Source: an uncultured Bacteroidales bacterium (GTDB taxonomy: Bacteria > Bacteroidota > Bacteroidia > Bacteroidales > Muribaculaceae). From it: 41,029 bases of DNA. The first letter of the stretch is position 1, and every line of letters begins with the position of its first letter. Location of the stretch: contig CACZVR010000009.1 of NCBI GenBank assembly GCA_902784675.1, forward strand, positions 1 to 41,029, read 5' to 3'. Positions 12,856-30,376 of the stretch are shown here, piece after piece. The notes beneath the pieces were generated by a model. The model was not told the DNA's origin. It made no database searches and saw nothing but the letters and a program-made list of their open reading frames with translations. A program made the position numbers and the translations under genes.

Positions 12856-15800
12856 ATGTATAAAATTGAGAACCATCCTATTCTTGACCTTCCAAAAGAA
12901 GAATATGTAGAATTCCAATTTGAAGGGAGAACCGTTCGCGGTCAGAAAGGTAAAACCATCGCTGCCGCTCTTCATCAGGCCGGATTAATCGTTCACAGCC
13001 ACAGTACCACGGGCCGAAACCGCAGTTTGGAGTGCGGTATCGGCAAGTGCGGTGCGTGCGAAATGCTTGTCGACGGTCAGGTGCGCCGCATCTGCATCAC
13101 CAGCGTTGACGGCGTGAAAGAGGTGCGCGAGATTCCCAAGGATTATCTGCCCGAGGGCAAGGCCCGTGCAGCCAGCGAGACCAAGGTCTATAAGACCACT
13201 GTAGCCATCATCGGTGGAGGCCCTGCCGGACTGGCATGCCGTGAGCAGCTCACCGCGCTGGGCATTCCCAACATCGTGGTGGACAACAACGCTACCGAGG
13301 GCGGTCAGTTCAACATGCAGACGCACCAGTTCTTCTTCTTTGAGAAGGAGCAGAAGTTTGGTGGCATGCGCGGTTTTGACATCGCCAAGACGCTTGCCGG
13401 CGACAATCACGACGGCATCCTGCTGAACAACACCGTGTGGGATCTGCTCGAAGGTCGCCGCATCGCGCTGAAGAACATCGTCACCCAGGAGGTGAGCTAC
13501 ATCGACGCCGACCATCTGGTGGTGGCCACGGGTGCCGTGCCGTTCATGCCGGTGTTTGAGAACGATGACGTGCCCGGTGTTTACACCGCTGCAGTGTTCC
13601 AGAAGATGATGAACCAGGAGCACACCCTGCTGGGCAAGCGCGTGCTCACCGTGGGTGCCGGCAACATCGGTTACCTGACGAGCTACCAGGCCATGCAGGC
13701 TGGAGCTACCATCAAGGCCATCATCGAGGGTATGGATCATGAGGGTGGTTTCCCTGTGCAGGCCAACCGTGTGCGCCGTTTGGGTATTCCCATCATGACA
13801 TCGCACGTGCTCATCCGCGCCATCCCCAACGAGGACTATACCGGCGTTACCGGTGCTGTGATTGCCGAGTGCAAGAACTTTCAGCCCATTCCCGGCACCG
13901 AGCGCGTGATTGACGACATCGACATCATCAACATCTGCACCGGTCTGATTCCCGACAACCAGCTGCTCGTGAAGGGCCGTTCGGTATTCGGCCGCAACGT
14001 GTATGGCGCCGGTGATGCCGTTCGCATCGGTGAGGGCACCAGTGCCGTGCTGCGTGGCAAACAGGTGGCCTATGAGGTGGCCCAGGAGATGGGTATCCGC
14101 TTCGCCTATGAGGACTATTTGGAGGTTTCCCGCCAGTATATCGACTCTCAGCAGCGCCCCGTGCGCTTGCTGGACGCGCCGCGTGTTCCCGATGAGGAGC
14201 GCATGGCTGCAAAGCCCTATGTGCAGATCAACTGCCTGTACGGCTTCGCTTGCAATCCTTGCACCTTTGCTTGCCCGCAGGGTGCTATCACCAAGCCCAC
14301 CACCTCGTCGGTGCCCATGGTCGATTATGACAAGTGCATCGGCTGTATGCAATGCGTGAACCATTGCCCTGGTCTGGCCATCTTCGGCTATGACAAGCGC
14401 AAGAACGTAGTGTTCCTGCCTGTAGAGTATGAGGTGGAAGAGGGCAAGGAAGTCTTCCTGGTTGATGACAACGGCGCCAAGGTGGGCGAGGGTGTCATCG
14501 AGAAGGTGCTCAAGAAAGACAACAAGACCAATGTGGCCCGCGTTCAAGCCACCCAGGCCGATGAGTTGAACAACGTGAAGGGCTTTATCCTCAAGGAGCG
14601 CTATCCCGAGCCCTTGAACCTGCGTCCGCTCACCAACCCCGAGGAAGGCAAGTCATTTGTCTGCCACTGCGAGGATGTGGACGTGCAGACGTTGCTCGCT
14701 GTTGTGGGTGACCGCAAGTATATCTCGGTTGACGAGCTCAAGCACACCACCCGCATGGGTATGGGTCCATGCCGCGGCAAGCGTTGCGTGTCGCGCGCCA
14801 AGCAGATCCTGCGTGCTCACGGCATCGAAGTGACCGGCGAGAGCACCCCGCGTGCACCGTTGGCCAACCAGGTCACTCTGGGTGATGTGTACAATGGCGA
14901 GAGCAAGGAGACCTTCGTGTTTGAGCACGGCTCCATCATCGAGAAAGCCGAGACCGAGATCATCGTCGCTGGCGGTGGTATGGCCGGTAGTGCTGCATTC
15001 CGTTACTTTGCCGAGGCCGGCAAGCGTGTCATCCTGGTCAACTATGACCGCGGTTCAACGTGGCGCTGCATCGGTGGCGGACGTCCCGCGTTCTCCAACC
15101 CCGACATCAGCGACATCGCGATGCACAACTTGGAAATCTTCCGCGACGACCAGGCACATTGCAACATCGACCTGAAGATGACCCGCTATGTCAACCTCGT
15201 TCATGACGACGCCACCTATCGCTCGCTTGACGCTTCTCGCGCATGGAGCGAGGCCTACATGATCGACCGCAAGGACTTCACCGAGAAGATTTCGCCCTAC
15301 TGGAATCCCAACGATAACATCTACAGCCACGCCTTGATCTCGGAGAACTGCTGGCAGGCCACGCCGGGCCGCACCATCGAGTATGTGCGCACCGTGGGCA
15401 AGCAGCATGGCGGCGAGGTGCTCGAGGACTGCGAGGTGATGAGCGTTCAGCGCGCTGGCGACAAATACCGCGTGCTGGTGCGTCGCCACGACAAGCACTA
15501 TGTGGAGTACACCTGCGACCACTTTGTCAATGCTATGGGTTGGGGCTCGGAGAAGTTTGCCGACATGCTCGGTATCGACACCCAGCTCTATCCTGTCAAG
15601 CATCAGGCATTCATCACCCGCCGATTGCCCAACATGGGTGTGAACGGTGATTCGCTCGACATGATCATCGACCGTCGTCACTACAAGGGCTTCAACGCCG
15701 TCTATGGTCAGCAGTTCCTGCACACGGGCCAAATCATCGGTTGCGCATCGCCCGACTGCGACGCCTATGAGGCACGTCAGAACCTGAAGTACAACAGTCA

Positions 15801-16077
15801 GGCCTTCCTGAAGATCGTGAGCGAGATGTTCGCCCAGTGGATACCCAACCTGGCATCCGTCGGCTTCCATGCCGTATGGGCCGGCTACTACATTGAGCCG
15901 CGCTACATTATCGATCCCGAGGTTGGTCTGTTGACCGGTCTGCGTGGTCACGGCTTCATGCTTGGCCAGTACCTGGCAAAGCTCTATGTGGACAAGTATC
16001 TGGGCAAGCCCGTTCCCGAGTACATGAAGGACCTCGCCATCGGCGGCAAGGGACTGAGCGAGAACGCTTTCCAGTAA
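12856..16077 (+). CDS. Five-domain Fe-S/FAD fusion oxidoreductase (amine/amino-acid dehydrogenase type)
   Basis: 1073 residues joining parts that are usually separate subunits. Residues about 18-100 are a [2Fe-2S] domain with C60, C65, C68 and C80 (C-x4-C-x2-C-x11-C). Residues about 114-440 are a pyridine-nucleotide-disulfide-type FAD domain (VAIIGGGPAGLACREQL, second nucleotide fold 'VLTVGAGNIGYLTS' near 260). Residues 457-510 form a double [4Fe-4S] ferredoxin (C460, C466, C469, C473 and C494, C497, C500, C504). A BFD-like [2Fe-2S] domain has C603, C605, C639 and C644. From about 697 there is a DAO-type FAD domain ('EIIVAGGGMAGSAAFRYFAE'). The order matches HcnABC, octopine/nopaline oxidase and archaeal dye-linked proline dehydrogenase subunits fused into one chain. 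All cluster ligands are present. Probable role: cytoplasmic oxidation of an amino or imino acid, with electrons passed to an unknown acceptor. The substrate cannot be deduced. Monocistronic, ending at a strong terminator. Confidence 0.85.
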   Translation: MYKIENHPILDLPKEEYVEFQFEGRTVRGQKGKTIAAALHQAGLIVHSHSTTGRNRSLECGIGKCGACEMLVDGQVRRICITSVDGVKEVREIPKDYLPEGKARAASETKVYKTTVAIIGGGPAGLACREQLTALGIPNIVVDNNATEGGQFNMQTHQFFFFEKEQKFGGMRGFDIAKTLAGDNHDGILLNNTVWDLLEGRRIALKNIVTQEVSYIDADHLVVATGAVPFMPVFENDDVPGVYTAAVFQKMMNQEHTLLGKRVLTVGAGNIGYLTSYQAMQAGATIKAIIEGMDHEGGFPVQANRVRRLGIPIMTSHVLIRAIPNEDYTGVTGAVIAECKNFQPIPGTERVIDDIDIINICTGLIPDNQLLVKGRSVFGRNVYGAGDAVRIGEGTSAVLRGKQVAYEVAQEMGIRFAYEDYLEVSRQYIDSQQRPVRLLDAPRVPDEERMAAKPYVQINCLYGFACNPCTFACPQGAITKPTTSSVPMVDYDKCIGCMQCVNHCPGLAIFGYDKRKNVVFLPVEYEVEEGKEVFLVDDNGAKVGEGVIEKVLKKDNKTNVARVQATQADELNNVKGFILKERYPEPLNLRPLTNPEEGKSFVCHCEDVDVQTLLAVVGDRKYISVDELKHTTRMGMGPCRGKRCVSRAKQILRAHGIEVTGESTPRAPLANQVTLGDVYNGESKETFVFEHGSIIEKAETEIIVAGGGMAGSAAFRYFAEAGKRVILVNYDRGSTWRCIGGGRPAFSNPDISDIAMHNLEIFRDDQAHCNIDLKMTRYVNLVHDDATYRSLDASRAWSEAYMIDRKDFTEKISPYWNPNDNIYSHALISENCWQATPGRTIEYVRTVGKQHGGEVLEDCEVMSVQRAGDKYRVLVRRHDKHYVEYTCDHFVNAMGWGSEKFADMLGIDTQLYPVKHQAFITRRLPNMGVNGDSLDMIIDRRHYKGFNAVYGQQFLHTGQIIGCASPDCDAYEARQNLKYNSQAFLKIVSEMFAQWIPNLASVGFHAVWAGYYIEPRYIIDPEVGLLTGLRGHGFMLGQYLAKLYVDKYLGKPVPEYMKDLAIGGKGLSENAFQ

Positions 16078-18321: not shown

Positions 18322-20424
18322 ATGAAATCATACCTTTCGATTCTTCTGCTGCTGGCGTGCGTGGGCACGATGGCAGCTCAAGAGACGGTCGTGCTTGACT
18401 CGACCGACGTGTTCTTTCGCCACATAGAACTGAAACAAGTGGTCGTCACCGGTCCGACCGGTGCAGTAAAGATGCAAGACATGTCGATGCCTGCAGGAAT
18501 CGTTGACCGTAACAGCCTGCGCATGACTCCTGCCACCAACATCGTTGATGCGGTGGCCAAGCTGCCTGGTGTGGCGCAGGTGAGTACCGGCAGCGGCATT
18601 TCCAAGCCCGTCATCCGCGGACTGGGATATAACCGTGTGGTCGTTGTTGCCGACGGCGTGCGCCAGGAGGGGCAGCAATGGGGCGACGAGCACGGTGTGG
18701 AGATTGACGGCAATGCCGTGAGTTCGGTCGAGGTGCTCAAGGGACCCGCGAGCCTGCTCTATGGCTCTGACGCACTGGCGGGTGTCCTCAAACTCAACAC
18801 CGATCCCGTAGTGCCGTTGGGCAAGATGCGCTTGAATGTGAACACTGAATATCATTCCAACAGTGGTCTCGTGAACTACTCGTTTAACTATGGCGGCAAC
18901 AAGCAGGGTTGGGCATGGAACATCCGCTATGGTGACAAGTTTGCCCATGCCTACAAGACCCCGGGTGACGGCTATGTGCCCAACACCCAGTTCCGCGAGC
19001 GTGCCCTGTCGGGTATGTTGGGTGTCAACAAGACCTGGGGTCACACGCGCCTGATAGGGTCCTATTTCCACGTCACACCCAGTATTGCCGAGGGTGAGCG
19101 TGACCCGCAGACAGGTGAACTGGAACAACCCTATGCCGACGCCAAGACCTATCACCACGGTCTGCCTTACCAGCAGGTGTATCATTACAAGGCCGTGCTT
19201 GACAACGCTGTCTATTTGGGAGAGGGGCGATTCAATGCCGTGTTGGCTTATCAGCAGAACCGTCGCCAAGAATTTGAGGAGCCCGATGAGTATGGGCTTT
19301 ACATCAAGCTGCACACGGTGAACTACAACATCCACTATGTGACACGACGCTTGGGTGAAGACTGGCGCATCACCAGTGGCGTGAGCGGCATGTGGCAACG
19401 CTCGCTCAACGAGGGCGACGAGTTCCTGATTCCTGACTACAGCCTGTTTGACTTCGGTGCCTTCGTCACCACGACGGCCAACGTCGGCCGTTGGGCTCTG
19501 AACGGAGGTCTGCGCTTTGACAACCGCCACCTCGACAGCAGTGAGCTGATGGATGACGGGGACCTGCGCTTCCAAGCCTTCAAGCGCAACTTCAACGGTT
19601 TTACCGCCAGCGTGGGTGCCGTGTGGCATGCCACCGATCATCTCGATTTGCGGGCAAATGCCGCTCGCGGTTTCCGCGCTCCCAACATCAGTGAGTTGGC
19701 CAGCAACGGTGTGCATGAGGGATCGCTGCGCTACGAGGTGGGTAACCGTGACCTCAAACCCGAGTTCAGCTTGCAGTTTGACCTGGGTGCTGAATTGACC
19801 ACGTCATGGCTCGATGCACAGCTGTCGTTGTTCAGCAACCGCATCGACAACTACATTTTCATCCATCGCTCGGGCGAGATCATCGACGATGAGTTCATGA
19901 CCTATCGCTACGACAGTGGTGACGCCCAGCTGCTGGGCGGCGAACTTGCATTGGATATCCATCCCTGGCACTTCCTGCACCTGGGCACCAGTTTTTCTCT
20001 GGTCAATGCCGTGCAGCTGCACCAGCCCGAGGAATCCAAGTACCTGCCGTTCACCCCGGCGCCGCATTGGCAGAGCGATATCAAATGGGAAATCCTGCAT
20101 GACGGACGCGTGTTGAACAACGCCTTCGTCTCGCTGGGTGTAGATTATAACTTCAAGCAGGATCATTACTACCGTGCCGATGACACCGAAACGGCCACTC
20201 CGGCCTATTGCCTGCTGAATGCAGCCATCGGCACCGACATCATGTGCAAGGGACGTCGTGTGGCATGCCTGAGTTTGATGGGGACCAACCTCACCAACAA
20301 GGCCTACCAAAACCACTTGAGCCGCCTCAAGTATACCGACGTTAACCCCGTCACCGGGCGCCAGGGCGTCTTGAATATGGGGCGCAACATCATCGTCAAA
20401 CTCGCCATTCCGCTCGAGTTCTGA
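18322..20424 (+). CDS. TonB-dependent outer-membrane receptor, probable metal or metallophore uptake
   Basis: 700 residues with a signal peptide (MKSYLSILLLLACVGTMAAQ). The plug domain is at about 35-155 ('VVVTGPTGAVKMQDMSMPAG', 'VRQEGQQWGDEHGVEID', 'VEVLKGPASLLYGSDALAGV'). A beta-barrel follows, ending in the aromatic 'IIVKLAIPLEF'. It lacks the N-terminal carboxypeptidase-like domain and the SusD partner of glycan receptors, and its length is that of siderophore/zinc/copper receptors (ZnuD/CirA class). Several His-rich loops ('TYHHGLPYQQVYHYK', 'KQDHYYRADD') also point to metals. The substrate is unproven. It follows the Cys/His-rich membrane peptide, probably in one transcript, and ends at a terminator shared with the convergent gene. 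Confidence 0.85.
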   Translation: MKSYLSILLLLACVGTMAAQETVVLDSTDVFFRHIELKQVVVTGPTGAVKMQDMSMPAGIVDRNSLRMTPATNIVDAVAKLPGVAQVSTGSGISKPVIRGLGYNRVVVVADGVRQEGQQWGDEHGVEIDGNAVSSVEVLKGPASLLYGSDALAGVLKLNTDPVVPLGKMRLNVNTEYHSNSGLVNYSFNYGGNKQGWAWNIRYGDKFAHAYKTPGDGYVPNTQFRERALSGMLGVNKTWGHTRLIGSYFHVTPSIAEGERDPQTGELEQPYADAKTYHHGLPYQQVYHYKAVLDNAVYLGEGRFNAVLAYQQNRRQEFEEPDEYGLYIKLHTVNYNIHYVTRRLGEDWRITSGVSGMWQRSLNEGDEFLIPDYSLFDFGAFVTTTANVGRWALNGGLRFDNRHLDSSELMDDGDLRFQAFKRNFNGFTASVGAVWHATDHLDLRANAARGFRAPNISELASNGVHEGSLRYEVGNRDLKPEFSLQFDLGAELTTSWLDAQLSLFSNRIDNYIFIHRSGEIIDDEFMTYRYDSGDAQLLGGELALDIHPWHFLHLGTSFSLVNAVQLHQPEESKYLPFTPAPHWQSDIKWEILHDGRVLNNAFVSLGVDYNFKQDHYYRADDTETATPAYCLLNAAIGTDIMCKGRRVACLSLMGTNLTNKAYQNHLSRLKYTDVNPVTGRQGVLNMGRNIIVKLAIPLEF

Positions 20425-21564: not shown

Positions 21565-22212
21565 ATGGAAATAAAAAACAGACCCAATCCAAACGTGGCA
21601 TTTCCGAATCCTAAGATTCCAAGCCTGTGCTTCATCAAGAACGTGGTGAAGAACCCGCGTATTATCATCGGCGAGTACACCTATTACGATGATGTGGATG
21701 GTGCTGACCAGTTCGAGAAGCATGTCACTCATTTCTATGACTTCATTGGTGATCGGCTGATTATCGGAAAATTTTGCGCGATAGCTCGAGGAGTTGAGTT
21801 TGTCATGAACGGTGCCAATCACAGGATGGACGGAGTGACAACCTATCCGTTTTACGTCATCGGTGGTGACTGGGGCAGCGCCATAGCTCCAGTGAAAGAC
21901 GAATTGCCCCTGAAGGGCGATACAGTTGTGGGCAATGACGTCTGGATTGGGCAGAATGTTACTATCATGCCAGGCGTTCACATTGGCGATGGAGCCATTA
22001 TTGGTGCCGACTCGGTGGTGGCCTCGGATATTCCTCCATACGCTGTTGCCGTGGGAAATCCCTGTCGGGTGGTCAGGATGCGTTTTGACGACGAGTTCAT
22101 CGCCTATCTGCTGGACCTGAAGTGGTGGGATTGGAATATCGAGAAGATAGAGGCCAATTTTGAAGCCTTGTCAAGTGGTGACTTGTCGTTGATCAGGAAG
22201 ATTAATCAATAG
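21565..22212 (+). CDS. Vat/CatB-like xenobiotic O-acetyltransferase
   Basis: 215 residues, left-handed beta-helix (hexapeptide) acetyltransferase of the XAT class. The catalytic loop 'FVMNGANHRMDGVTTYPF' carries the His used for acetyl transfer in VatD/CatB, and the hexapeptide coils 'GDTVVGNDVWIGQNVTIMPG' and 'HIGDGAIIGADSVVASDIPP' form the acetyl-CoA site. The 'VAVGNPCRVVRMRF' segment and the C-terminal helix 'LLDLKWWDWNIEKIE' complete the family signature. Length agrees with streptogramin A or chloramphenicol acetyltransferases, but substrate cannot be assigned; many chromosomal members have no proven drug substrate. It lies 11 bp after the lipoprotein and 10 bp before the kinase-GNAT fusion. 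Confidence 0.88.
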   Translation: MEIKNRPNPNVAFPNPKIPSLCFIKNVVKNPRIIIGEYTYYDDVDGADQFEKHVTHFYDFIGDRLIIGKFCAIARGVEFVMNGANHRMDGVTTYPFYVIGGDWGSAIAPVKDELPLKGDTVVGNDVWIGQNVTIMPGVHIGDGAIIGADSVVASDIPPYAVAVGNPCRVVRMRFDDEFIAYLLDLKWWDWNIEKIEANFEALSSGDLSLIRKINQ

Positions 22213-22222
22213 TTTCACAGTT

Positions 22223-23311
22223 ATGGTTATACTGATAACAGGAGCGTCACACACCGGGAAAACTCTCTTGGCACAGCGGATGCTGGAAAAATACAACTTT
22301 CCGTATCTGTCCATTGATCATTTGAAAATGGGCTTGATTCGCAGTGGCAATACACCCCTTACTCCTGAAGACGATGAGGCCCTTACCGATTATCTGTGGC
22401 CAATTGTCCGTGAGATGATCAAAACAGCGATTGAGAATCATCAGCATCTCGTTGTGGAAGGTGCCTATGTTCCCTATAACTGGAGGGAAAGCTTTGACGA
22501 GCAGTATCAGAGTTCTATCCGTTTTATTTGTCTTGCCATGACAGATGAATTCATTGAAAACCATTATGTTGAAATCAAAGAGCATAGTTCAGATATTGAG
22601 AATCGGCTGGATGACAGCAATTGCACGATAGCCAGTCTTAAGGCCGACAACAAGGACTATATCAATGGTTTTAAAGCCGCAGGTGAAATGGTCTTTTTAA
22701 TCAATTCAGACTATGAACAAATGATTCAAACTATTTTGGATGATACAATAGGAAATAATGACTTAAAACGAAATGCAATGGAAACAGAAGTAAAGCTGAT
22801 CAGGCTCATTGAGGAGCGGGTCATCGAGTTCAAGAATGAGATGCAGGAGGCATTTGAACGTGGCTTCCAGGGGCATGTCAGAGATGACGGCGATGACGGC
22901 GAAAACCAGTGGCAGGTGTTGCCCGACGGGGACTTCTATCAGGCGATGCGGGCCGAGGGCGCCGAGGCCTATGAGGCTGTTGACGCCGACGGCCAGCGTG
23001 TGGGTGGTGCCATCATCAACATCGATGGAGCAAAGCGTCATGGCGAGCTGGCGTTCCTCTATGTGAAATCGGGTGCGCAGAGTAAGGGCATCGGCCAGGC
23101 CATCTGGAAGACCATTGAAGCGATGCACCCCGAGGTGGAGGTGTGGGAGACCTGCACTCCCTATTTCGATCGCCGCAACATCCATTTTTATATCAACTGC
23201 TGCGGTTTCCATGCCATCGAGTTCTTCAATGCACATCATCGTGACCCGAACATGCCTGAACAGTTTGATCCCAGCGATGGCCTGTTCGTGTTTGAGAAAC
23301 GCATGAAATAA
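22223..23311 (+). CDS. P-loop kinase-like domain fused to a GNAT acetyltransferase
   Basis: 362 residues in two halves. Residues 1-180 are a small P-loop kinase: Walker A in 'LITGASHTGKTLLAQRML', then 'YLSIDHLKMGLIRSG' (substrate/LID-like Asp-His) and 'HLVVEGAYVPYNW' (Walker B-like), resembling shikimate/chloramphenicol-phosphotransferase-type or zeta-toxin-like folds. After a linker, residues 186-362 (starting at an internal ATG, 22778) form a GNAT domain: 'ELAFLYVKSGAQSKGIGQAI' is the acetyl-CoA loop (Q-S-K-G-I-G) and 'FDRRNIHFYINCCGFHAIEF' the C-terminal half. The first half is clearly more AT-rich than the second, as if two genes were joined recently. The frame is continuous. Substrates are unknown; independent translation of the GNAT half from 22778 is possible. 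Confidence 0.8.
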   Translation: MVILITGASHTGKTLLAQRMLEKYNFPYLSIDHLKMGLIRSGNTPLTPEDDEALTDYLWPIVREMIKTAIENHQHLVVEGAYVPYNWRESFDEQYQSSIRFICLAMTDEFIENHYVEIKEHSSDIENRLDDSNCTIASLKADNKDYINGFKAAGEMVFLINSDYEQMIQTILDDTIGNNDLKRNAMETEVKLIRLIEERVIEFKNEMQEAFERGFQGHVRDDGDDGENQWQVLPDGDFYQAMRAEGAEAYEAVDADGQRVGGAIINIDGAKRHGELAFLYVKSGAQSKGIGQAIWKTIEAMHPEVEVWETCTPYFDRRNIHFYINCCGFHAIEFFNAHHRDPNMPEQFDPSDGLFVFEKRMK

Positions 23312-23331: not shown

Positions 23332-23829
23332 ATGACAGACTTCAGACCCATGCGCCGCAATCGGCAGCAATTATCTAGAGAAGAATGTGAGCGCATCCTT
23401 GGCCGTGGCACTTCGGGCGTGCTCGCGCTGGCGGGCGACGGCGGTTACCCTTACGCCGTGCCGCTCAGCTATGTCTATGCCGATGGGGCGATCATTTTCC
23501 ACTCGGCCATGCAAGGGCACAAGGTCGATGCCATCAGGCGCGACAGCCGTTGCTCGTTTTGCGTCATCGAGCAGGACGAAGTCAAGCCTGCCGAGTTCAC
23601 GACCTACTTCAGGAGCGTGATCGCCTTTGGCCGCATCAGCATACTTGAGAATACCGACGAGAAGGTGCAAGCCTTGCGCCTGTTGGGGCGCCGATACTCA
23701 CCCGGTGACGAGTCCGGCCTGCAACACGAGATTGACAAATCGCTGGACCACGTCCTGCTCCTGCGCCTTGACATCGACCACCTTTCCGGCAAAGAAGCCA
23801 TCGAACTGGCAAAGACAAGAAAACTGTAA
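23332..23829 (+). CDS. Nim-like pyridoxamine-5'-phosphate-oxidase-fold flavoprotein
   Basis: 165 residues. 'FRPMRRNRQQLSREECERIL', 'GTSGVLALAGDGGYPYAVPL', 'SYVYADGAIIFHSAMQGHK' and 'DAIRRDSRCSFCVIEQDE' follow the order seen in NimA-type nitroimidazole-resistance proteins, which bind FMN in a split-barrel dimer. The terminal 'HVLLLRLDIDHLSGKEAIEL' also fits. Chromosomal relatives are widespread, and resistance is not proven by sequence. It is the last gene of the operon (20-bp gap) and is followed by a weak inverted repeat AGGTGAA/TTCACCT (23839-23845, 23893-23899) ahead of a T-run. Confidence 0.85.
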   Translation: MTDFRPMRRNRQQLSREECERILGRGTSGVLALAGDGGYPYAVPLSYVYADGAIIFHSAMQGHKVDAIRRDSRCSFCVIEQDEVKPAEFTTYFRSVIAFGRISILENTDEKVQALRLLGRRYSPGDESGLQHEIDKSLDHVLLLRLDIDHLSGKEAIELAKTRKL

Positions 23830-24040: not shown

Positions 24041-27000
24041 ATGAAACTATATCCTTTGCTTCAATCACAACTGGGTGTATTTTATGACTGCATGAAATTT
24101 CCGAAAGTGATGCAGTACAACATCCCTTGCATCGTGCCTCTGACCGGCGACATCGACGTTGACCGCGTTGAGTCCGCGTTACAAACCATTTTCGCTGTAA
24201 GGAAGGAATTGAAAACACGCTTCCTCATTGACGATAATGGCGAACCCAAGCAGTATGTCGATGACAACAAGACTTTGACCGTTGTGCGTCGCGAGATGAC
24301 GGAATCTGACTTCCAGAATTATGCCCACCACGACTTCTGCCGCCCCTTCGACATCATGGGTGACGAGCCGCTGATCAGGGCCGAGATTGTGACGACTCCC
24401 GAGAAGAACTACCTGCTGGTGGACATCCATCACATGGTGACCGACGGCACGAGTTATCTGGTGCTGTTCCCGCAGCGCGATTTGCCGCTGGCCTACGAGG
24501 GGAAGCCCCTGCCCGTGCAGGAGTACGGAATGATGGAGGCTGCTGCCGACGAGAATGCCCGGTTGGGCGACGAGGAATACCAGCGTGCCAGGAGCGTGAT
24601 GAAGGAAAAATATGCAGGTGTGGATTTAGCCTCGATTTCAAGCCATCCCGAGAATCCTGTGGGTGAAATGGGGCAGGAGTCGGCTTACATCAGCAGGGCG
24701 GTGGTTGACGGCTGGTGCAAGGAGCAGGGTTTTGCTCCCTATCAGATTTTCCAGGCGGCATTCAGCTATGTGCTCGCCAGAATCGTCCGCGAGGACAAGG
24801 TGGCCTATACCACTATCTATCACGGACGCCGCGACCCGCGCGTGCGCGAGGCTCACGGCATGTTTGTACGCACCATCCCGTTCATGATGGAAATAAAACC
24901 GCAGCAGACTGTGCGCGAGTATATCGCCGCTGTTCACACCGAAATGAAGGACACGCTCTCACAGTTGGCCTATCCGTTCTCGCACTTCTGCCGCGACCTG
25001 GGCGTGCAGCCGGGCATCTCGTTCAACTTTACCGCTCTGCCCGGTTGGGAGGAGGAATACCACTTTGGCGACAAGCATTGTGCGTTTGTGCAGCAAGACC
25101 GTGGTGACGTGTTCTATGACATGCTGGCGCACATCTTCATCGTGGGTGCCGATGTCGTGGGCGACACCTCTTCAAACGATGAATATTACGACATCCGCAT
25201 GGAGTCGAGCCTGGCCATGAACAGCCGCAAGACTATGCGTATGATGGCCGATGCCATCAAAGCCACCGTGCAACGTATGATGGCGAACCTCGACAAGCCT
25301 ATCGACAGCATCAGCATCGTCAGCGACGATGAGGCCGAGCGCATCATCAAGATCGGCACGGGCAAGGACATTGATGTTGACCTGAGCAAGACGTTCGCCA
25401 ACCTCTTTACCGAGCAGGCCAAGCGCACGCCCGATGCCCCTGCCGTGGTGGATAAAGACAGCCAGCTGACCTATGGCGAGATGGACCGCTACTCCAACAT
25501 GCTTGCCCACCGGCTCATCGAGTTCGGCGTGCGGCCCGACGACTTTGTCTGTGTCATGCTTGACCGCACCAAGGAATTCCCGCTGTCGGTTTTGTCCATC
25601 CACAAGGCAGGTGCTGCCTATACGCCCCTTGACTTTGAATATCCTAACGAGCGACTGAGCTACATGCTCGAGAACTCCGAGTCTAAGGTGCTCATCACGT
25701 CTCATGATGTGTTGGCCGCCAAAAAGGCCGAAGGCAACTTTGATACTGCTGCTGCCCGCACGTTCTTCATCGACGATTTTATGGCCGGGGTGGACGAGGC
25801 TTCTCCAGTGGGGGCTATCGACCTCTCGCGTCCCGATGGCCTGGCCTACATGATCTACACATCGGGCTCCACGGGCAAGCCTAAGGGTGCGATGCTGCAT
25901 CAGGCTGGCCTGCGCAACTTCATCGCCGTCGTCATCGACATGGAGAAACTCACCGCAGCCGACCGCATCAGCGGTCACCGCTCATTCTCCTTTGATGCGC
26001 ACATCGAGGACATGTATCCCGTGCTCACCCTGGGCGGCTCGTTCCACGTCATGCCCACCGAGATTCGCAAGGACCTGAATGCCATTCGCCAGTTCCTCAT
26101 TGACCATCAGATTACCGGTGGCGGCTACTCCACGGCCATGACTTGCCTGCTGCTCAACACCTTCGATGACCTGCCCATCCGCTTCACCACTGGAGGTGGC
26201 GAGAAGATGGATGGCGTCTATAGCGACCACATCGAGATTATCAATGTGTATGGCCCGACGGAGTGCACCGATGACACGTCTTACTATAGCATCCCGCCTG
26301 GCCAGCGCATCGAGAACATCCCCATTGGCCAGAGTGTGGCCAACAACTGGAACTTCATTGTCGACACGGCCGGCAATCTGGTGCCCCAGGGTGTGACCGG
26401 TGAACTGTGCTTCGCCGGCATCCAGGTGGGCCGCGGCTATTGGCGGTTGCCCGAGCGCACGGCCAAGTCGTTCGTCGATTGTCCGTTCGTGAAGGAAGAC
26501 CGTTGGGGACGACCGGTGCGCATGTACCACACCGGTGACCTGTGCCGCTGGAACGAGGAAGGCCAAATAGAGTATATGGGACGCATCGACACGCAGGTGA
26601 AGCTGCGCGGCTTCCGCATCGAGCTGGGCGAGATTGAAAGCAAGGCGCTCAACATCGAGGGCGTCCGTCAGGCTGCTGCCGAGGTGCGCAAGGTGATGGG
26701 CAACGAGCATCTGGTGCTCTATTATACCGTGGTCGAGGGTTCCAATATCGATGATGAAAGCCTGCGTGCCGCACTTGCCGCGTCGTCGTTGGCCGAATAC
26801 ATGGTGCCCGACACCTATATGCGACTCGATACCATGCCGATGACGCCCAACGGCAAAATCAACCGCAAGACGCTGCCCATGCCCGAACTCAAGCGCAGCA
26901 TCGACTATGTGGCTCCCGAAGGCGAGACCGAACAGCTCTTTGCCCGCATCTTCTCGGAAGTTTTGGGCATCGAGCAGGTGGGTGCTCTCGACGATTTCTT

Positions 27001-28384
27001 CGAGATTGGCGGCACCAGCCTTAATGCCATCAAGGTCATCGTCGAAGCCAGCAAAAACGGCGTGCAGATTGTCTTCAACGACCTGTTCAACAACACGACG
27101 CCAAGGGCATTGGCTGCCTTTGTGAAAGAAAAGGGTGAAGACGATGCAGCATCGAGTGCGACGGGTGAAGTGAAGGACGTGAAGAGCGAAGCGGCGGCAG
27201 CAGCCAACCCTCAACTCTCGGCCCTCAATGCTCAGCTCAAGCGTAACAACCTCAAGAGCTTCCTTGGTGGAGAGCGCCAACCTGTGGGCGACGTGTTGCT
27301 CACAGGCGCCACTGGCTATCTGGGCATGCACATCCTCAACGAGTTGCTCACGACCCACGACGGGCACATTTTGTGTCCGCTGCGCGTCAGTGGTGGCGAA
27401 GATCCGCTGCGCCGCCTCAAGACCATGTACTTCTATTACTTCGGCGAGACCGAGGCGTTCAGGCATTTCGATGAGCGCGTTTCGGCATTTGCCGCCGAGG
27501 TGACCAAGCCTGGTGCCCTAGATTCCATTGACAGCAAGGGTCTCACCGTTGTCAATTGCGTGGCCAACGTGAAGCACTTCTCGGCCGGCAACGATATCGA
27601 ACTGGTCAACATCGAGAGTGTGCGCCACCTCATCACCTTCTGTCTGCGCACCGGTTCGCGTCTCATCCACATCTCCACGACCAGCATTGCAGGCCTGAGT
27701 GTCGATGGTGTGCCGGGACCTGATGTCAAACTCACCGAGCAGGATTTGTGGCTCGGCCAGAACATCGACGCCAACAAGTATGTCTATTCCAAGTTCAAGG
27801 CCGAAGAACTGGTGCTTGACGCCATTTTCCATCACGGCCTCGATGCCAAGATCATGCGTGTGGGCAACCTCTCGGCTCGCCAGAAGGACGGCGAGTTCCA
27901 AATCAACTTCAATACCAACAACTTCCTGGCATTGCTGCGCGCCTATGTCATCATCGGCATGGTGCCTTACGAGGCACTCAGTCAGACCTTCGAGTTCTCG
28001 CCAATCGACGATGTCGCTCATGCCATCATGTTGTTGGCCACGGCCCCCAAGGACTGCATCGTCTTCCATCCCTATAACATCCACCACCCGTACTTTGCCG
28101 ATATCCTCAACGGCTTTGCCGACGCCGGCATCACATTGAAGCGAGTGGAAAAGGAAGAATTCCAGGAGGCTTTGGATCGGATGATGGATAATCCCGACCT
28201 TGTCACCCTGCTGCGACCGCTCATGGCCTACAACCTGAGCACCACCCACCAGATGCGCTGGATTGAAGCCGACAACGACTATACCACCCAGGTGCTCTAT
28301 CGCTATGGCTTCCAATGGCCCGCCACCGCCCGCGACTATGTCCACCGCTTCGTCGACACAATCGTCGCCTTCGACTACTTCTAA
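24041..28384 (+). CDS. Single-module nonribosomal peptide synthetase, C-A-T-R
   Basis: 1447 residues. Condensation domain at about 1-430, active site HHMVTDG (from H130). Adenylation domain at about 450-930: 'YMIYTSGSTGKPKGAML' (A3), 'NVYGPTEC' (A5), 'YHTGDLCRW' (A7), 'GRIDTQVKLRGFRIELGEIE' (A8) and 'TPNGKINRKTLP' (A10, catalytic Lys). Carrier domain with the phosphopantetheine Ser 993 in 'EIGGTSLNAI'. Terminal thioester reductase from about 1075 with 'LLTGATGYLGMHIL' (NADPH) and the catalytic 'YSKFK' at 1249-1253. Reading the pocket by eye against GrsA gives D-A-E-G-T-G-V-D-D: acidic residues that hint at a basic amino acid (weak). Reductive release should give an N-acylated or dipeptidyl amino aldehyde or alcohol. 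The N-terminal C domain needs a donor (fatty acyl or another carrier) not encoded nearby. No 4'-phosphopantetheinyl transferase or exporter is in the window. Own promoter and terminator, so monocistronic. Confidence 0.93.
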   Translation: MKLYPLLQSQLGVFYDCMKFPKVMQYNIPCIVPLTGDIDVDRVESALQTIFAVRKELKTRFLIDDNGEPKQYVDDNKTLTVVRREMTESDFQNYAHHDFCRPFDIMGDEPLIRAEIVTTPEKNYLLVDIHHMVTDGTSYLVLFPQRDLPLAYEGKPLPVQEYGMMEAAADENARLGDEEYQRARSVMKEKYAGVDLASISSHPENPVGEMGQESAYISRAVVDGWCKEQGFAPYQIFQAAFSYVLARIVREDKVAYTTIYHGRRDPRVREAHGMFVRTIPFMMEIKPQQTVREYIAAVHTEMKDTLSQLAYPFSHFCRDLGVQPGISFNFTALPGWEEEYHFGDKHCAFVQQDRGDVFYDMLAHIFIVGADVVGDTSSNDEYYDIRMESSLAMNSRKTMRMMADAIKATVQRMMANLDKPIDSISIVSDDEAERIIKIGTGKDIDVDLSKTFANLFTEQAKRTPDAPAVVDKDSQLTYGEMDRYSNMLAHRLIEFGVRPDDFVCVMLDRTKEFPLSVLSIHKAGAAYTPLDFEYPNERLSYMLENSESKVLITSHDVLAAKKAEGNFDTAAARTFFIDDFMAGVDEASPVGAIDLSRPDGLAYMIYTSGSTGKPKGAMLHQAGLRNFIAVVIDMEKLTAADRISGHRSFSFDAHIEDMYPVLTLGGSFHVMPTEIRKDLNAIRQFLIDHQITGGGYSTAMTCLLLNTFDDLPIRFTTGGGEKMDGVYSDHIEIINVYGPTECTDDTSYYSIPPGQRIENIPIGQSVANNWNFIVDTAGNLVPQGVTGELCFAGIQVGRGYWRLPERTAKSFVDCPFVKEDRWGRPVRMYHTGDLCRWNEEGQIEYMGRIDTQVKLRGFRIELGEIESKALNIEGVRQAAAEVRKVMGNEHLVLYYTVVEGSNIDDESLRAALAASSLAEYMVPDTYMRLDTMPMTPNGKINRKTLPMPELKRSIDYVAPEGETEQLFARIFSEVLGIEQVGALDDFFEIGGTSLNAIKVIVEASKNGVQIVFNDLFNNTTPRALAAFVKEKGEDDAASSATGEVKDVKSEAAAAANPQLSALNAQLKRNNLKSFLGGERQPVGDVLLTGATGYLGMHILNELLTTHDGHILCPLRVSGGEDPLRRLKTMYFYYFGETEAFRHFDERVSAFAAEVTKPGALDSIDSKGLTVVNCVANVKHFSAGNDIELVNIESVRHLITFCLRTGSRLIHISTTSIAGLSVDGVPGPDVKLTEQDLWLGQNIDANKYVYSKFKAEELVLDAIFHHGLDAKIMRVGNLSARQKDGEFQINFNTNNFLALLRAYVIIGMVPYEALSQTFEFSPIDDVAHAIMLLATAPKDCIVFHPYNIHHPYFADILNGFADAGITLKRVEKEEFQEALDRMMDNPDLVTLLRPLMAYNLSTTHQMRWIEADNDYTTQVLYRYGFQWPATARDYVHRFVDTIVAFDYF

Positions 28385-28561: not shown

Positions 28562-29944
28562 CTATGTCAGTCGTCGGTGCCGAAGAGGGGGTCTTCGGGC
28601 ATGACCATCACGGGTTTGGTCTCGGCGGCCTTGAGGATGTGCTGCGGCACATATTTCTTGTCCACACCACTCGTTGGTCATGATGATATATCCCTTGTGT
28701 CCGCTGTCGCCACCCCATGAGTTCTCTACTTTCCACTTGACGGGATTGCCGTTCTCGTCAAGATCGACGGCACAGAGCGTCATGGCGTGCGTCGAGCCGC
28801 TGTCGAAGGTGGCAATGCGCTGGGCCTTGTCCATGGGGAATGTGGTGCCGAACAGGGTCGCATAGTCAAAGTTGTCGAGGGCAAGATAGCCGTTGTCGCG
28901 GTTGAGCTGTTTGCCCACGTCGAAGCTGGCATAGAGCTTGGTGGAGTCCTTCAACGAAGCGATGGCCATGGCTGCGATATCCTCCATGGGCAGGTTGACG
29001 TAGCGCCAGTTGTGGCCGTCGTAGGTGTGACGGTCATATTCCACCTCGTAGGTCTTGTAGTATTCCCTGCGGGGGTCGTTCATCGCCATGATGAAGGTGC
29101 CGTTGATGGGACCGCCCACCGTCTCGCGGTAGAATTCCAGCGGGGTGTAGGTGCGTGCGGGGCCTACTGCCTTGCCGTTCTTGTCGCGGAAGGCATAGGT
29201 GAACGACTTGATGGGCTCGCCCAGCGTGAGCGAGAGCATCGAATAGATGGTGCCCAGCATCTCGGTCTTGCGCTGGTTGATGGCTTTTTTGCTCTTTTTG
29301 TCAGCCACCATCTGCCGCAGCTCCAGGCCGAATTCACGCAGCTTGGATGCAACGAGTTGGCTCATGCGTGAGGTGCGTTCGGCCGAGTAGGTCTCGGGCT
29401 GTACCTCAACGGGCACGAGGCCGTATTTCTCGGCAAGGTCGGCAGCGCCGCAGAAGGTGCCGCCGTCGTTCATGGGATGGTGAAAGAAGAACTGCACGCG
29501 TGTGTCGTCAATGGGCTTGTCGGCACAGTCGATCACGCCTTGCAGCATGAGGTTGGCCTTCTCGAGCTGGTCGTAGAAGAAGAGGTAGTCGTGAGAGAAC
29601 TCCACAGCGATGGAGTCGCCATGCTGACGAGCGAAGTTGGCACGCAGCACGTTGAAACTGGAGTACATCCAGCAGCGCCCGCTCTGTCGCTGGTTGTGAA
29701 TCGACTGTTTGGGCGTCTCGATGCTGAAGTGGGTGTCAGTAACCTTGTTGTTGTGGTAGTTACGGGCAAGATCGTCGATGGAATTTGTCGCCATGGCATT
29801 GCTGATGGCCTTGTTTTGGTTGCTTGCCGAGGTGGCGACGATTTGGCGCATCATGTCGGGGCTGATGCCGCCTTGGGAACGGTCTTGTGCAGAGCCGGCA
29901 AAGGCGAGGCCTAATGCCAGAGCGAGTGTGATGAATTTGTTCAT
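28562..29944 (-). CDS. Secreted bleomycin-hydrolase/PepC-type cysteine peptidase with shifted 3' end
   Basis: 460 residues from the chosen start. Signal peptide MNKFITLALALGLAFAGSAQ. Papain-fold C1B peptidase: catalytic Cys91 in 'NQRQSGRCWMYSSFNVLR', catalytic His near 385 in 'GSTHAMTLCAVDLD' and Asn near 407 in 'KVENSWGGDSG'. The frame changes at 28666. After 'IIMTNEW' the annotated frame reads a nonsense basic tail, whereas the next frame encodes 'VDKKYVPQHILKAAETKPVM' and 'PEDPLFGTDD' with a stop at 28567, the expected family ending. By comparison with relatives about 26 bp seem to be missing. The lost tail normally reaches the active-site cleft and defines aminopeptidase action. The start at 29944 is set by the signal peptide; the frame continues to 30223 through repeats, which is not credible. 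Confidence 0.85.
   Translation of the reverse strand: MNKFITLALALGLAFAGSAQDRSQGGISPDMMRQIVATSASNQNKAISNAMATNSIDDLARNYHNNKVTDTHFSIETPKQSIHNQRQSGRCWMYSSFNVLRANFARQHGDSIAVEFSHDYLFFYDQLEKANLMLQGVIDCADKPIDDTRVQFFFHHPMNDGGTFCGAADLAEKYGLVPVEVQPETYSAERTSRMSQLVASKLREFGLELRQMVADKKSKKAINQRKTEMLGTIYSMLSLTLGEPIKSFTYAFRDKNGKAVGPARTYTPLEFYRETVGGPINGTFIMAMNDPRREYYKTYEVEYDRHTYDGHNWRYVNLPMEDIAAMAIASLKDSTKLYASFDVGKQLNRDNGYLALDNFDYATLFGTTFPMDKAQRIATFDSGSTHAMTLCAVDLDENGNPVKWKVENSWGGDSGHKGYIIMTNEWCGQEICAAAHPQGRRDQTRDGHARRPPLRHRRLT
28666..28669 (-). other. Frameshift/deletion point in the C1B peptidase
   Basis: Downstream of the codon for Trp in 'TNEW' (28667-28669) the conserved C-terminal coding resumes one frame off. 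It may be a true deletion or a sequence error. Confidence 0.7.
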
Positions 29945-30012
29945 ATTCGGTTGTGAAATGGTTATGCGCACGGCACTTGGCCTATGCGCAGGATTAATAG
30001 CTTCTTTGACTG

Positions 30013-30044
30013 CAAAGGTAGTGCAAGTCGAAGACAATGCCAAA
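30013..30044 (-). promoter_or_regulatory. Candidate promoter of the C1B peptidase inside a repeat
   Basis: On the minus strand, TTTG (30044-30041), a 20-bp spacer and TACCTTTG (30020-30013), 68 bases before the start codon. The -7 element is part of the repeat end described at 30013-30152. Confidence 0.5.
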
Positions 30045-30152
30045 TTTATTTGAGCATTGTTGAGGCGCAGCCTACCTTGGCCGCCAGGCAACGGAGTGCA
30101 AGCCGAGCGGAAAACAAAATTTATTTTGATTTTCCCGAGTCGCCGCCTACCT
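30013..30152. repeat. Two diverged copies of a hairpin-ended intergenic repeat
   Basis: Copy A (about 30013-30078) starts CAAAGGTAGTGCAAG and ends GCGCAGCCTACCTTGG, so its ends are inverted. Copy B (about 30096-30152) has GTGCAAGCCGAGCGG and ends CGCCGCCTACCTA. Each has an AAATTTATTT-like centre. These resemble dispersed repeats common between genes in Bacteroidales. Confidence 0.65.
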
Positions 30153-30155
30153 AAA

Positions 30156-30376
30156 TAAAAGGAAAACAATAAGTACAATAAATACAAGACCATGCGGTGC
30201 GTAGCTCTAGTTAAAGACAACACGAACGACTAATAATAAAACCTTAGCGTCTTTGCGTCTTAGCGTGGGGCAAAGGTATGCGATGGCAAAGGTATGCGAT
30301 GGCATTTGTGTAATTCGTAGTTTGTTTTCAACGGTGCGGATGCCTTTGTACTTATTGTATTTATTGTTTTCTTTTT
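30156..30376. repeat. Inverted repeat pair around a 16-bp tandem duplication
   Basis: A T-rich element containing 'TTTATTGTACTTATTG' is found on the minus strand at 30156-30187 and, with the two hexamer variants swapped, on the plus strand at 30346-30376. Between them GGCAAAGGTATGCGAT occurs twice in perfect tandem (30269-30284, 30285-30300). Confidence 0.65.
30308..30327 (+). repeat. Direct repeat shared with 28539-28557
   Basis: The string GTAATTCGTAGTTTGTTTT occurs here and at about 28539-28557, on either side of the C1B peptidase gene. Confidence 0.6.

What the first reader, a model, noticed from the sequence alone, without database searches (positions are those of the whole stretch)
24041..28384. 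Stand-alone single-module C-A-T-R synthetase, a probable amino-aldehyde factory
All four domains are complete by motif, and nothing else biosynthetic lies nearby. A reductase at the end predicts an aldehyde or alcohol product, and the leading condensation domain must join a donor that this locus does not encode (fatty acyl-CoA/ACP or a second synthetase elsewhere). Gut clostridia are known to make NRPS-derived peptide aldehydes and pyrazinones; a one-module version in a Bacteroidales genome would be a different route. The pocket residues read by eye (D-A-E-G-T-G-V-D-D) suggest a cationic amino acid, weakly.
Basis: partly seen in the sequence, partly recalled or inferred. Interest (0 to 1): 0.78.

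Follow-up and report, generated by a model that had tools for sequence, protein, structure and literature searches.

The report
One-module peptide-aldehyde enzyme from rumen bacteria
A gene shared by a group of rumen bacteria encodes a complete one-step enzyme that probably joins an acyl group to an amino acid and releases the result as a reactive aldehyde, a kind of molecule that can block protein-cutting enzymes.

Summary
In detail: window 24041-28384 encodes an intact 1447-aa C-A-T-R synthetase. It is a conserved subfamily. 27 of 30 related named loci carry an uninterrupted one-module gene; 14 of 101 genomes of the genus have its C domain. All four domains are under strong purifying selection (median dN/dS 0.05-0.09; T-R linker 0.49). 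The A-pocket code DAEGTGVDDK is the same in 28 of 29.

In this genus a dimodular NRPS sits in an operon with a Cache-SpoIIE phosphatase, a STAS protein and an outer-membrane barrel. All 7 genomes with the stand-alone gene (one as a fragment) but no other NRPS, the window's own included, keep these three genes without an NRPS. In two other loci the three genes flank the stand-alone gene directly.

Best reading (0.45): an acyl group from acyl carrier protein or CoA is joined to a cationic amino acid and released as an N-acyl amino aldehyde. Donor, substrate and product are inferred; C-domain typing was inconclusive. New variant of a known kind.

The parts
24041..28384 (+). stand-alone C-A-T-R nonribosomal peptide synthetase gene, 1447 aa
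24047..25345 (+). condensation (C) domain, aa 3-435; HHMVTDG at 24428-24448
   Evidence: Pfam PF00668 156.6 bits; AlphaFold2 mean pLDDT 90.4; dN/dS 0.067
25406..26443 (+). adenylation (A) domain core, aa 456-801; YTSGSTGKPKG at 25856-25888; pocket code DAEGTGVDDK
   Evidence: PF00501 222.4 bits; code; dN/dS 0.049
26630..26857 (+). A-domain C-terminal subdomain, aa 864-939, with the A10 lysine K939
   Evidence: PF13193 21.8 bits, below its cut-off of 24.5; NGKINRK invariant
26942..27124 (+). thiolation (T) domain, aa 968-1028; GGTS with the phosphopantetheine serine at 27008-27019
   Evidence: PF00550
27131..27280 (+). T-R linker, aa 1031-1080, weakly constrained (median dN/dS 0.49)
27299..28381 (+). 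terminal thioester reductase (R) domain, aa 1087-1447; TGATGYLG at 27302-27325, YVYSK at 27779-27793
   Evidence: PF07993 96.9 bits; 6vtj and 4f6c alignments; invariant residues
23981..23988 (+). TAATTTTG, a match to the Bacteroidota -7 consensus TAnnTTTG (consensus recalled), 60 nt before the start codon: possible own promoter
   Evidence: no chance expectation was computed

Best explanation
A functional one-module NRPS that primes itself from general metabolism. Shown by sequence: a PPTase-dependent T domain, an A domain with an unusually fixed acidic pocket, a C domain with an intact HHxxxDG that is under strong purifying selection, and an NADPH-type reductase with its Thr-Tyr-Lys residues. 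Inferred: the A domain loads a cationic amino acid (lysine-, ornithine- or arginine-like) on the T domain; the C domain acylates its amino group with an acyl group carried by the fatty-acid acyl carrier protein or CoA; the R domain releases an N-acyl alpha-amino aldehyde. The enzyme belongs to the same system as the genus's dimodular NRPS: a periplasmic-sensor (Cache) SpoIIE phosphatase with a STAS partner as control and an alginate-export-type outer-membrane barrel as likely exit or uptake route. In genomes such as the window's, where the dimodular NRPS is gone, the stand-alone enzyme is the only NRPS left for that machinery. The likely activity of the product is inhibition of serine or cysteine proteases by the aldehyde.
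For: Architecture and motifs; orthologs. Median dN/dS over 210 gene pairs, saturated pairs dropped: C 0.067 (154 usable), A 0.049 (191), T 0.088 (168), R 0.075 (179), linker 0.487 (118): the C domain is in use. Code identical in 28 of 29 A domains. No partner NRPS: no other C domain in the own assembly nor, above the cut-off, in G447, G563, G571, G610, G682. Few carriers: the own assembly has three PP-binding matches (AcpP, a 77-aa ACP beside a FabH-like gene, and the T domain itself), and G447 (96% complete) has two, an 87-aa ORF taken to be AcpP and its own T domain, so an aminoacyl-carrier donor other than a second copy of itself is lacking there. In L116 a C-A-T with the sister C domain stands first, before a separate C protein: an initiating position. 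Partner link: Cache-SpoIIE, STAS and the barrel persist in 7 of 7 stand-alone genomes lacking another NRPS; barrel present in 69 of 75 NRPS-bearing and 1 of 9 NRPS-less genomes of the genus; the three genes flank the stand-alone gene in L095 and L110 and precede a dimodular NRPS plus stand-alone gene in L100.
Against: The C domain is not placed with lipid-starter domains: by sequence and fold it is nearer TycC, Txo, LgrA and DhbF (76.6, 61.0, about 49 and 48 bits; TMq 0.76-0.84) than the starters CDA-C1 and RzmA (19.7 and 18.2 bits; TMq 0.73-0.78). The dimodular C1, initiating by position, ranks alike, so this is inconclusive, not supportive. Substrate call rests on a pocket code with no close labelled match. 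Carrier and C-domain absences come from draft MAGs (own 86% complete). In the window no partner gene is adjacent, and no neighbour family recurs in more than 6 of 30 loci. G698 has the C domain but no barrel match, and no PPTase was found in G682. The 84-genome co-occurrence is not corrected for descent. No product, expression or activity data.
Confidence: 0.45

Rival explanations
1. Self-donation: one copy's aminoacyl-T domain serves as donor for the C domain of another, giving a homodipeptide aldehyde that closes to a dihydropyrazinone or pyrazinone, as from two-module synthetases of the AusA kind.
For: The C domain ranks nearer to elongation-type domains than to lipid starters; nearest NCBIfam model is AusA, its second module (601.9 bits); in G447 the only carriers are an AcpP-like one and its own T domain.
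Against: No second A or T domain in the protein; the sister C domain in L116 stands at an initiating position before another module; no example of such self-donation was looked for or found in the passages read.
Confidence: 0.15
2. No condensation: the C domain is a passenger and A-T-R releases a free amino aldehyde that dimerises to a pyrazine, as described for ATRed of Xenorhabdus indica.
For: A-T-R minimal NRPSs that do this are in print (abstract and passages of PMC7586950; passages of PMC8658869).
Against: The C domain keeps HHxxxDG and evolves under a median dN/dS of 0.067, about as constrained as the R domain.
Confidence: 0.1
3. It is a detached module that takes its donor in trans from the dimodular (or trimodular) NRPS of the same cell.
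For: 7 of the 13 genomes tested with the Condensation model, all stand-alone bearers, also have a dimodular NRPS; in L100 the two genes are 21 nt apart on one strand, in L109 a trimodular NRPS lies upstream.
Against: Those large NRPSs end in their own R domain, so they release their product; six genomes with an intact or near-intact stand-alone gene, own included, show no other C domain above the cut-off.
Confidence: 0.08
4. Siderophore-type product: two aryl or acyl groups on one lysine, released by reduction, like myxochelin from MxcG.
For: Same C-A-T-R order and nearly the same length as the MxcG model (aligned 4-1443 to 5-1435 of 1442); E239 suggests a basic residue.
Against: MxcG score 379 against a cut-off of 2300. 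Besides this A domain the own assembly has only two AMP-binding matches, both nearest to acyl-CoA ligase models, none to an aryl-acid ligase. No siderophore synthesis genes were seen in the window; a heme-type TonB receptor at 18322 is not specific.
Confidence: 0.05

Closest known systems
AusA / gut C-A-T-C-A-T-R peptide-aldehyde synthetases (aureusimine, phevalin; Guo et al. 2017, seen only through papers that cite it)
   Same: terminal R domain of the same family; the second module C-A-T-R of the AusA model aligns end to end (601.9 bits); gut anaerobes
   Different: one module, not two; score far below the AusA cut-off of 2500; A code not that of an aromatic or branched-chain A domain in our set
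dimodular NRPS of the same genus (for example L081, L083, about 2415 aa)
   Same: R domain 45-49% identical and A domains 34-60%; same accessory genes
   Different: separate C-domain clade (support 100) and different pocket codes: dimodular A1 DAMFLTxVFK-like, A2 DAQSVACVAK-like
ATRed of Xenorhabdus indica and other A-T-R reductase NRPSs (abstract and passages of PMC7586950)
   Same: one module, reductive release
   Different: ATRed lacks a C domain; here a constrained C domain is present
MxcG (myxochelin)
   Same: C-A-T-R, about 1440 aa
   Different: 379 of 2300 bits needed; no aryl-acid ligase found in the assembly
OaaC-type fatty-acid-amide condensation enzymes of gut Clostridia (passages of PMC13142362)
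   Same: proposed acyl-ACP donor, gut bacteria, minimal NRPS logic
   Different: free-standing C domain with DHxxxDS and free amine acceptors; here HHxxxDG, a T-bound acceptor and reductive release
terminal reductase 6vtj (host Methanobrevibacter ruminantium recalled)
   Same: closest solved R domain, 181 bits over aa 23-412 of the query
   Different: part of another, larger NRPS (recalled)

Membership tests
NRPS module with reductive release (C-A-T-R) | C domain with HHxxxDG | tested here: met
   HHMVTDG aa 130-136; 12 of 13 aligned sequences HH, one QH
NRPS module with reductive release (C-A-T-R) | A-domain core motifs with the A10 lysine | tested here: met
NRPS module with reductive release (C-A-T-R) | T domain with GGxS | tested here: met
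   GGTS 990-993
NRPS module with reductive release (C-A-T-R) | R domain with Gly-rich NADPH site and Thr/Tyr/Lys | tested here: met
   TGATGYLG, STxS, YxxxK invariant in 13 of 13
NRPS module with reductive release (C-A-T-R) | PPTase in the genome | tested here: met
   two matches in the own assembly; none found in G682
NRPS module with reductive release (C-A-T-R) | aldehyde or alcohol product | not testable with these tools
   needs expression and mass spectrometry
AusA-type two-module peptide-aldehyde NRPS | two A-T modules in one assembly line | tested here: not met
   one A and one T domain; no other C domain in the assembly
AusA-type two-module peptide-aldehyde NRPS | NCBIfam NF047350 cut-off | tested here: not met
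   601.9 of 2500 bits
MxcG (myxochelin) | NCBIfam NF038078 cut-off | tested here: not met
   379.1 of 2300 bits
lipid-starter (C-starter) condensation domain | clusters with known starter domains | tested here: inconclusive
   own clade with L116; deep placement unsupported; no labelled lipid starter could be added to the tree; nearest solved structures are not starters, but neither are they for the positional starter dimC1
fatty-acid-amide (OaaC-type) condensation domain | DHxxxDS motif, no T-bound acceptor | tested here: not met
   HHMVTDG with T and A domains in cis; definition
lysine-type A domain | code close to DAESIGSV | tested here: inconclusive
   4 of the first 8 positions match

The most novel reading that the evidence does not exclude
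A two-locus, ruminant-adapted chemical system: a single-module NRPS makes an N-acyl basic amino aldehyde, a periplasm-sensing Cache-SpoIIE/STAS partner switch controls it, and a dedicated alginate-export-type outer-membrane barrel carries it. The same control-and-export module serves either a two-module or a one-module synthetase, and in several lineages the two-module enzyme was deleted while the one-module enzyme took over the machinery from a distant locus.
Probability: 0.3. Interest if true: 0.72.

Novelty: new variant of a known kind. Interest (0 to 1): 0.5.

Why it matters
Aldehyde-releasing NRPSs are known from gut bacteria as two-module enzymes. A conserved one-module relative in rumen Bacteroidales gives a small, tractable enzyme (one polypeptide) for asking what the N-terminal C domain of such synthetases does, which the passages read leave open. 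The co-occurring sensor-phosphatase, STAS and outer-membrane barrel offer genetic handles for when the compound is made and how it leaves the cell. Prevotella NRPS clusters were among those more expressed in less feed-efficient steers (passages of PMC8241843); whether this gene is one of them is unknown.

Tried and rejected
Partner NRPS in the own genome: looked for with the Condensation, AMP-binding and PP-binding models; none found. A conserved gene neighbour: 30 loci compared (window plus 29; L121 dropped because no NRPS ORF was called); no family recurred in more than 6, and the link to the regulatory and barrel genes emerged only from the genome-wide search. C-domain typing by tree, by PDB sequence search with dimodular C1 and C2 as controls and by fold: not decisive. 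Labelled lipid-starter domains were sought in plasmid records; only a bacillomycin cluster, whose first gene BamA is a PKS/NRPS hybrid, and no fengycin cluster turned up in the stretches read, so none was added. Aryl-capped or siderophore product: no aryl-acid ligase. Free amino aldehyde with an idle C domain: disfavoured.

Literature: ten searches showed no paper on this subfamily in the library held, which lacks most subscription journals; Guo et al. 2017 is not held. For every paper cited I saw passages found by term (with the abstract where a passage lay in it), not the whole text.
Full report
What is there. Window 24041-28384 (+) is one open frame of 1447 codons with Pfam Condensation, AMP-binding, PP-binding and NAD_binding_4 domains in that order. 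Catalytic motifs of all four domains are present, and in an alignment with 12 orthologs (71-95% identical by domain, 79-91% over the whole length) they are invariant at the catalytic positions, apart from one QH in place of HH in the C motif of L069. The reductase aligns with the solved NRPS reductases 6vtj (181 bits) and AusA 4f6c (96 bits) with nucleotide-binding and Thr/Tyr/Lys positions kept.

How widespread. The window is a whole contig of a 2.70-Mb draft genome, 86% complete. A scan of one genome per species gave 31 loci, of which 30 are relatives: 27 carry an uninterrupted one-module gene matched over essentially the whole query, L115 is cut by the contig end, L121 has its frame interrupted, and L116 (55% identity) is a C-A-T without an R domain in the same ORF. 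Eight of the 30 record titles name the rumen or a ruminant stomach chamber (roe deer, yak, goat, water buffalo, sheep; one 'Rumen coassembly'), 18 bear RUG names (rumen uncultured genomes, recalled), and four give no source. In the genus, the C domain is in 14 of 101 genomes; G455 has in addition a fragment with the R end of the gene at a contig edge. Most sampled genomes of the genus instead or also carry a dimodular C-A-T-C-A-T-R NRPS of about 2420 aa whose second module is typically 35-40% identical.

Is it in use. Over 21 stand-alone genes (210 pairs, saturated pairs dropped) median dN/dS is 0.067 for C, 0.049 for A, 0.088 for T, 0.075 for R and 0.487 for the T-R linker. Four dimodular genes gave 0.06-0.19 for their domains on 3-5 usable pairs of 6. 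So the C domain is maintained. The pocket code is DAEGTGVDDK in 28 of 29 stand-alone A domains and DAEGIGVDDK in L100; nearest others are DAGGIGVNDK (A2 of L078, A domain 60% identical) and DAQSMLGDLK (L116). Against codes in print, DAESIGSV for lysine matches at D, A, E and G; DVGEIGSIDK for ornithine less. A basic amino acid is plausible, not shown.

Donor. No other C domain is in the own assembly. Of 12 other genomes with the stand-alone gene tested, G447, G563, G571, G610 and G682 have no second C domain above the cut-off (G447 has one 18-bit match below it), and seven have a dimodular NRPS as well. PP-binding matches in the own assembly are three: AcpP beside FabF (NCBIfam 127.6 bits), a 77-aa ACP beside a FabH-like gene and the T domain itself. 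G447, 96% complete, has two: an 87-aa ORF like the AcpP ORF, and its T domain; G571 and G610 have three, G563 four, G682 five. So an aminoacyl donor from another NRPS is not generally available, and acyl-AcpP, acyl-CoA or a second copy of the enzyme remain. Two acyl-CoA-ligase-like genes are in the own assembly. Against a lipid starter: the C domain scores highest with TycC, Txo1/2 and LgrA and poorly with CDA-C1 and RzmA, and Foldseek ranks LgrA, Txo, TycC and DhbF first. As a control, the dimodular C1, which initiates by position, ranks alike, and C2 does too with higher scores, so similarity ranking does not type these domains. In the tree (88 rows, short search) the stand-alone C domains and the first C domain of L116 form one clade (support 100), apart from the dimodular C1 and C2 groups; deeper placement is unsupported. 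L116 places this kind of C domain in a first module, behind a MATE-type gene and before a separate C protein.

Partners at a distance. In L081-L083 the dimodular NRPS lies in an operon-like row with a SpoIIE phosphatase carrying a Cache-type sensor and an ATPase domain, a STAS protein, an outer-membrane barrel (Pfam Alginate_exp), a MATE transporter, a PPTase and, in L081 and L083, a PaaK-like ligase. In the own genome this row exists on contig C4 with the NRPS cut out: SpoIIE, STAS and barrel genes, then a 233-aa ORF made of the first 52 residues of the NRPS fused in frame to MATE residues 249-438, then a PPTase. This is a deletion or an assembly artefact; the tools cannot tell. All seven genomes that bear the stand-alone gene (G455 as a fragment) and no other NRPS keep SpoIIE, STAS and barrel genes, three of them with the PPTase. 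In L110 the barrel gene ends just before the stand-alone gene and SpoIIE, ATPase and STAS genes follow; in L095 barrel, SpoIIE and STAS genes lie on either side; in L100 the row SpoIIE-STAS-barrel-dimodular NRPS is followed after 21 nt by the stand-alone gene; in L109 a trimodular NRPS and a PaaK-like gene precede it. Over the genus the barrel is found in 82 of 101 genomes. NRPS status is known for 84 of these: barrel in 69 of 75 with an NRPS and in 1 of 9 without (Fisher p 6e-7; 7 of 7 stand-alone-only against 1 of 9, p 0.0014). Common descent is not corrected for. Exceptions: six NRPS-bearing genomes and G698 lack a barrel match, and G660 has the barrel without an NRPS.

Reading. The likeliest mechanism is loading of a basic amino acid, N-acylation by the C domain with an AcpP- or CoA-borne acyl group, and reductive release as an N-acyl amino aldehyde, under the control and export machinery that the dimodular NRPS also uses. 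Loading, acylation and release are inferred from domain logic; the partner link rests on synteny and co-occurrence. Protease inhibition is the natural guess from related aldehydes (passages) and is untested. A C1-type aminopeptidase gene lies within two genes of the stand-alone gene in 5 of 30 loci, on different sides; it could be a target or an immunity gene, or just a neighbour.

Known or new. It is an NRPS with reductive release; it is not an AusA or MxcG equivalog by cut-off, not an ATRed (it has a C domain), and not an OaaC-type amide synthase (HHxxxDG, not DHxxxDS). Rumen Bacteroidaceae NRPS clusters are known in bulk (934 in PMC8241843, passages), but none of my ten literature searches showed this subfamily. 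I file it as a new variant of a known kind.

Noticed in passing
L131 (own genome, contig C4: 8000-27900), L131:9911-10612: The genome's dimodular-NRPS operon lacks the NRPS: its first 52 residues are fused in frame to the second half of a MATE transporter, with SpoIIE, STAS, barrel and PPTase genes intact. Deletion or assembly artefact.
   Followed up: partly
window 28562-30223 (-): Secreted-looking C1-type aminopeptidase (PF03051, 381.6 bits) 177 nt downstream; within two genes of the stand-alone NRPS in 5 of 30 loci, on different sides. Possible target or immunity gene of a peptide aldehyde.
   Followed up: no
window 23332-23829 (+): PNPOx-fold gene close to the NimIJ nitroimidazole-resistance model (225.5 bits, cut-off 270), 211 nt upstream.
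   Followed up: no
window 21565-22212 (+): Acetyltransferase just under the cut-off of the Vat streptogramin acetyltransferase model (299.6 of 300 bits).
   Followed up: no
window 22223-23311 (+): Fusion of an AAA-type kinase-like domain with a GNAT acetyltransferase.
   Followed up: no
window 18322-20424 (+): TonB-dependent receptor closest to the heme/hemoglobin receptor models, below their cut-offs.
   Followed up: no
window 12856-16077 (+): 1073-aa multidomain FAD/iron-sulphur oxidoreductase with DAO and Pyr_redox_2 parts.
   Followed up: no
L116:1499-8114: Sister form: MATE with an ATPase domain, a C-A-T protein and a separate C-domain protein at the contig end, apparently the same logic split over several proteins.
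   Followed up: partly
L010 and L022 (other families of the order): Distant C-A-T-R-like single proteins (28% and 26% identity) with DVGEIFSIEK and DVGEVFSIEK codes, close to the printed ornithine code: unrelated one-module enzymes.
   Followed up: no
L121:3963-8347: Ortholog at 74% identity whose frame is interrupted in the C-domain region.
   Followed up: no
140 nt before the start codon in 27 orthologous loci: TAnnTTTG occurs in 16 of 27 (window at -60), suggesting an own promoter in many; chance rate not computed.
   Followed up: no
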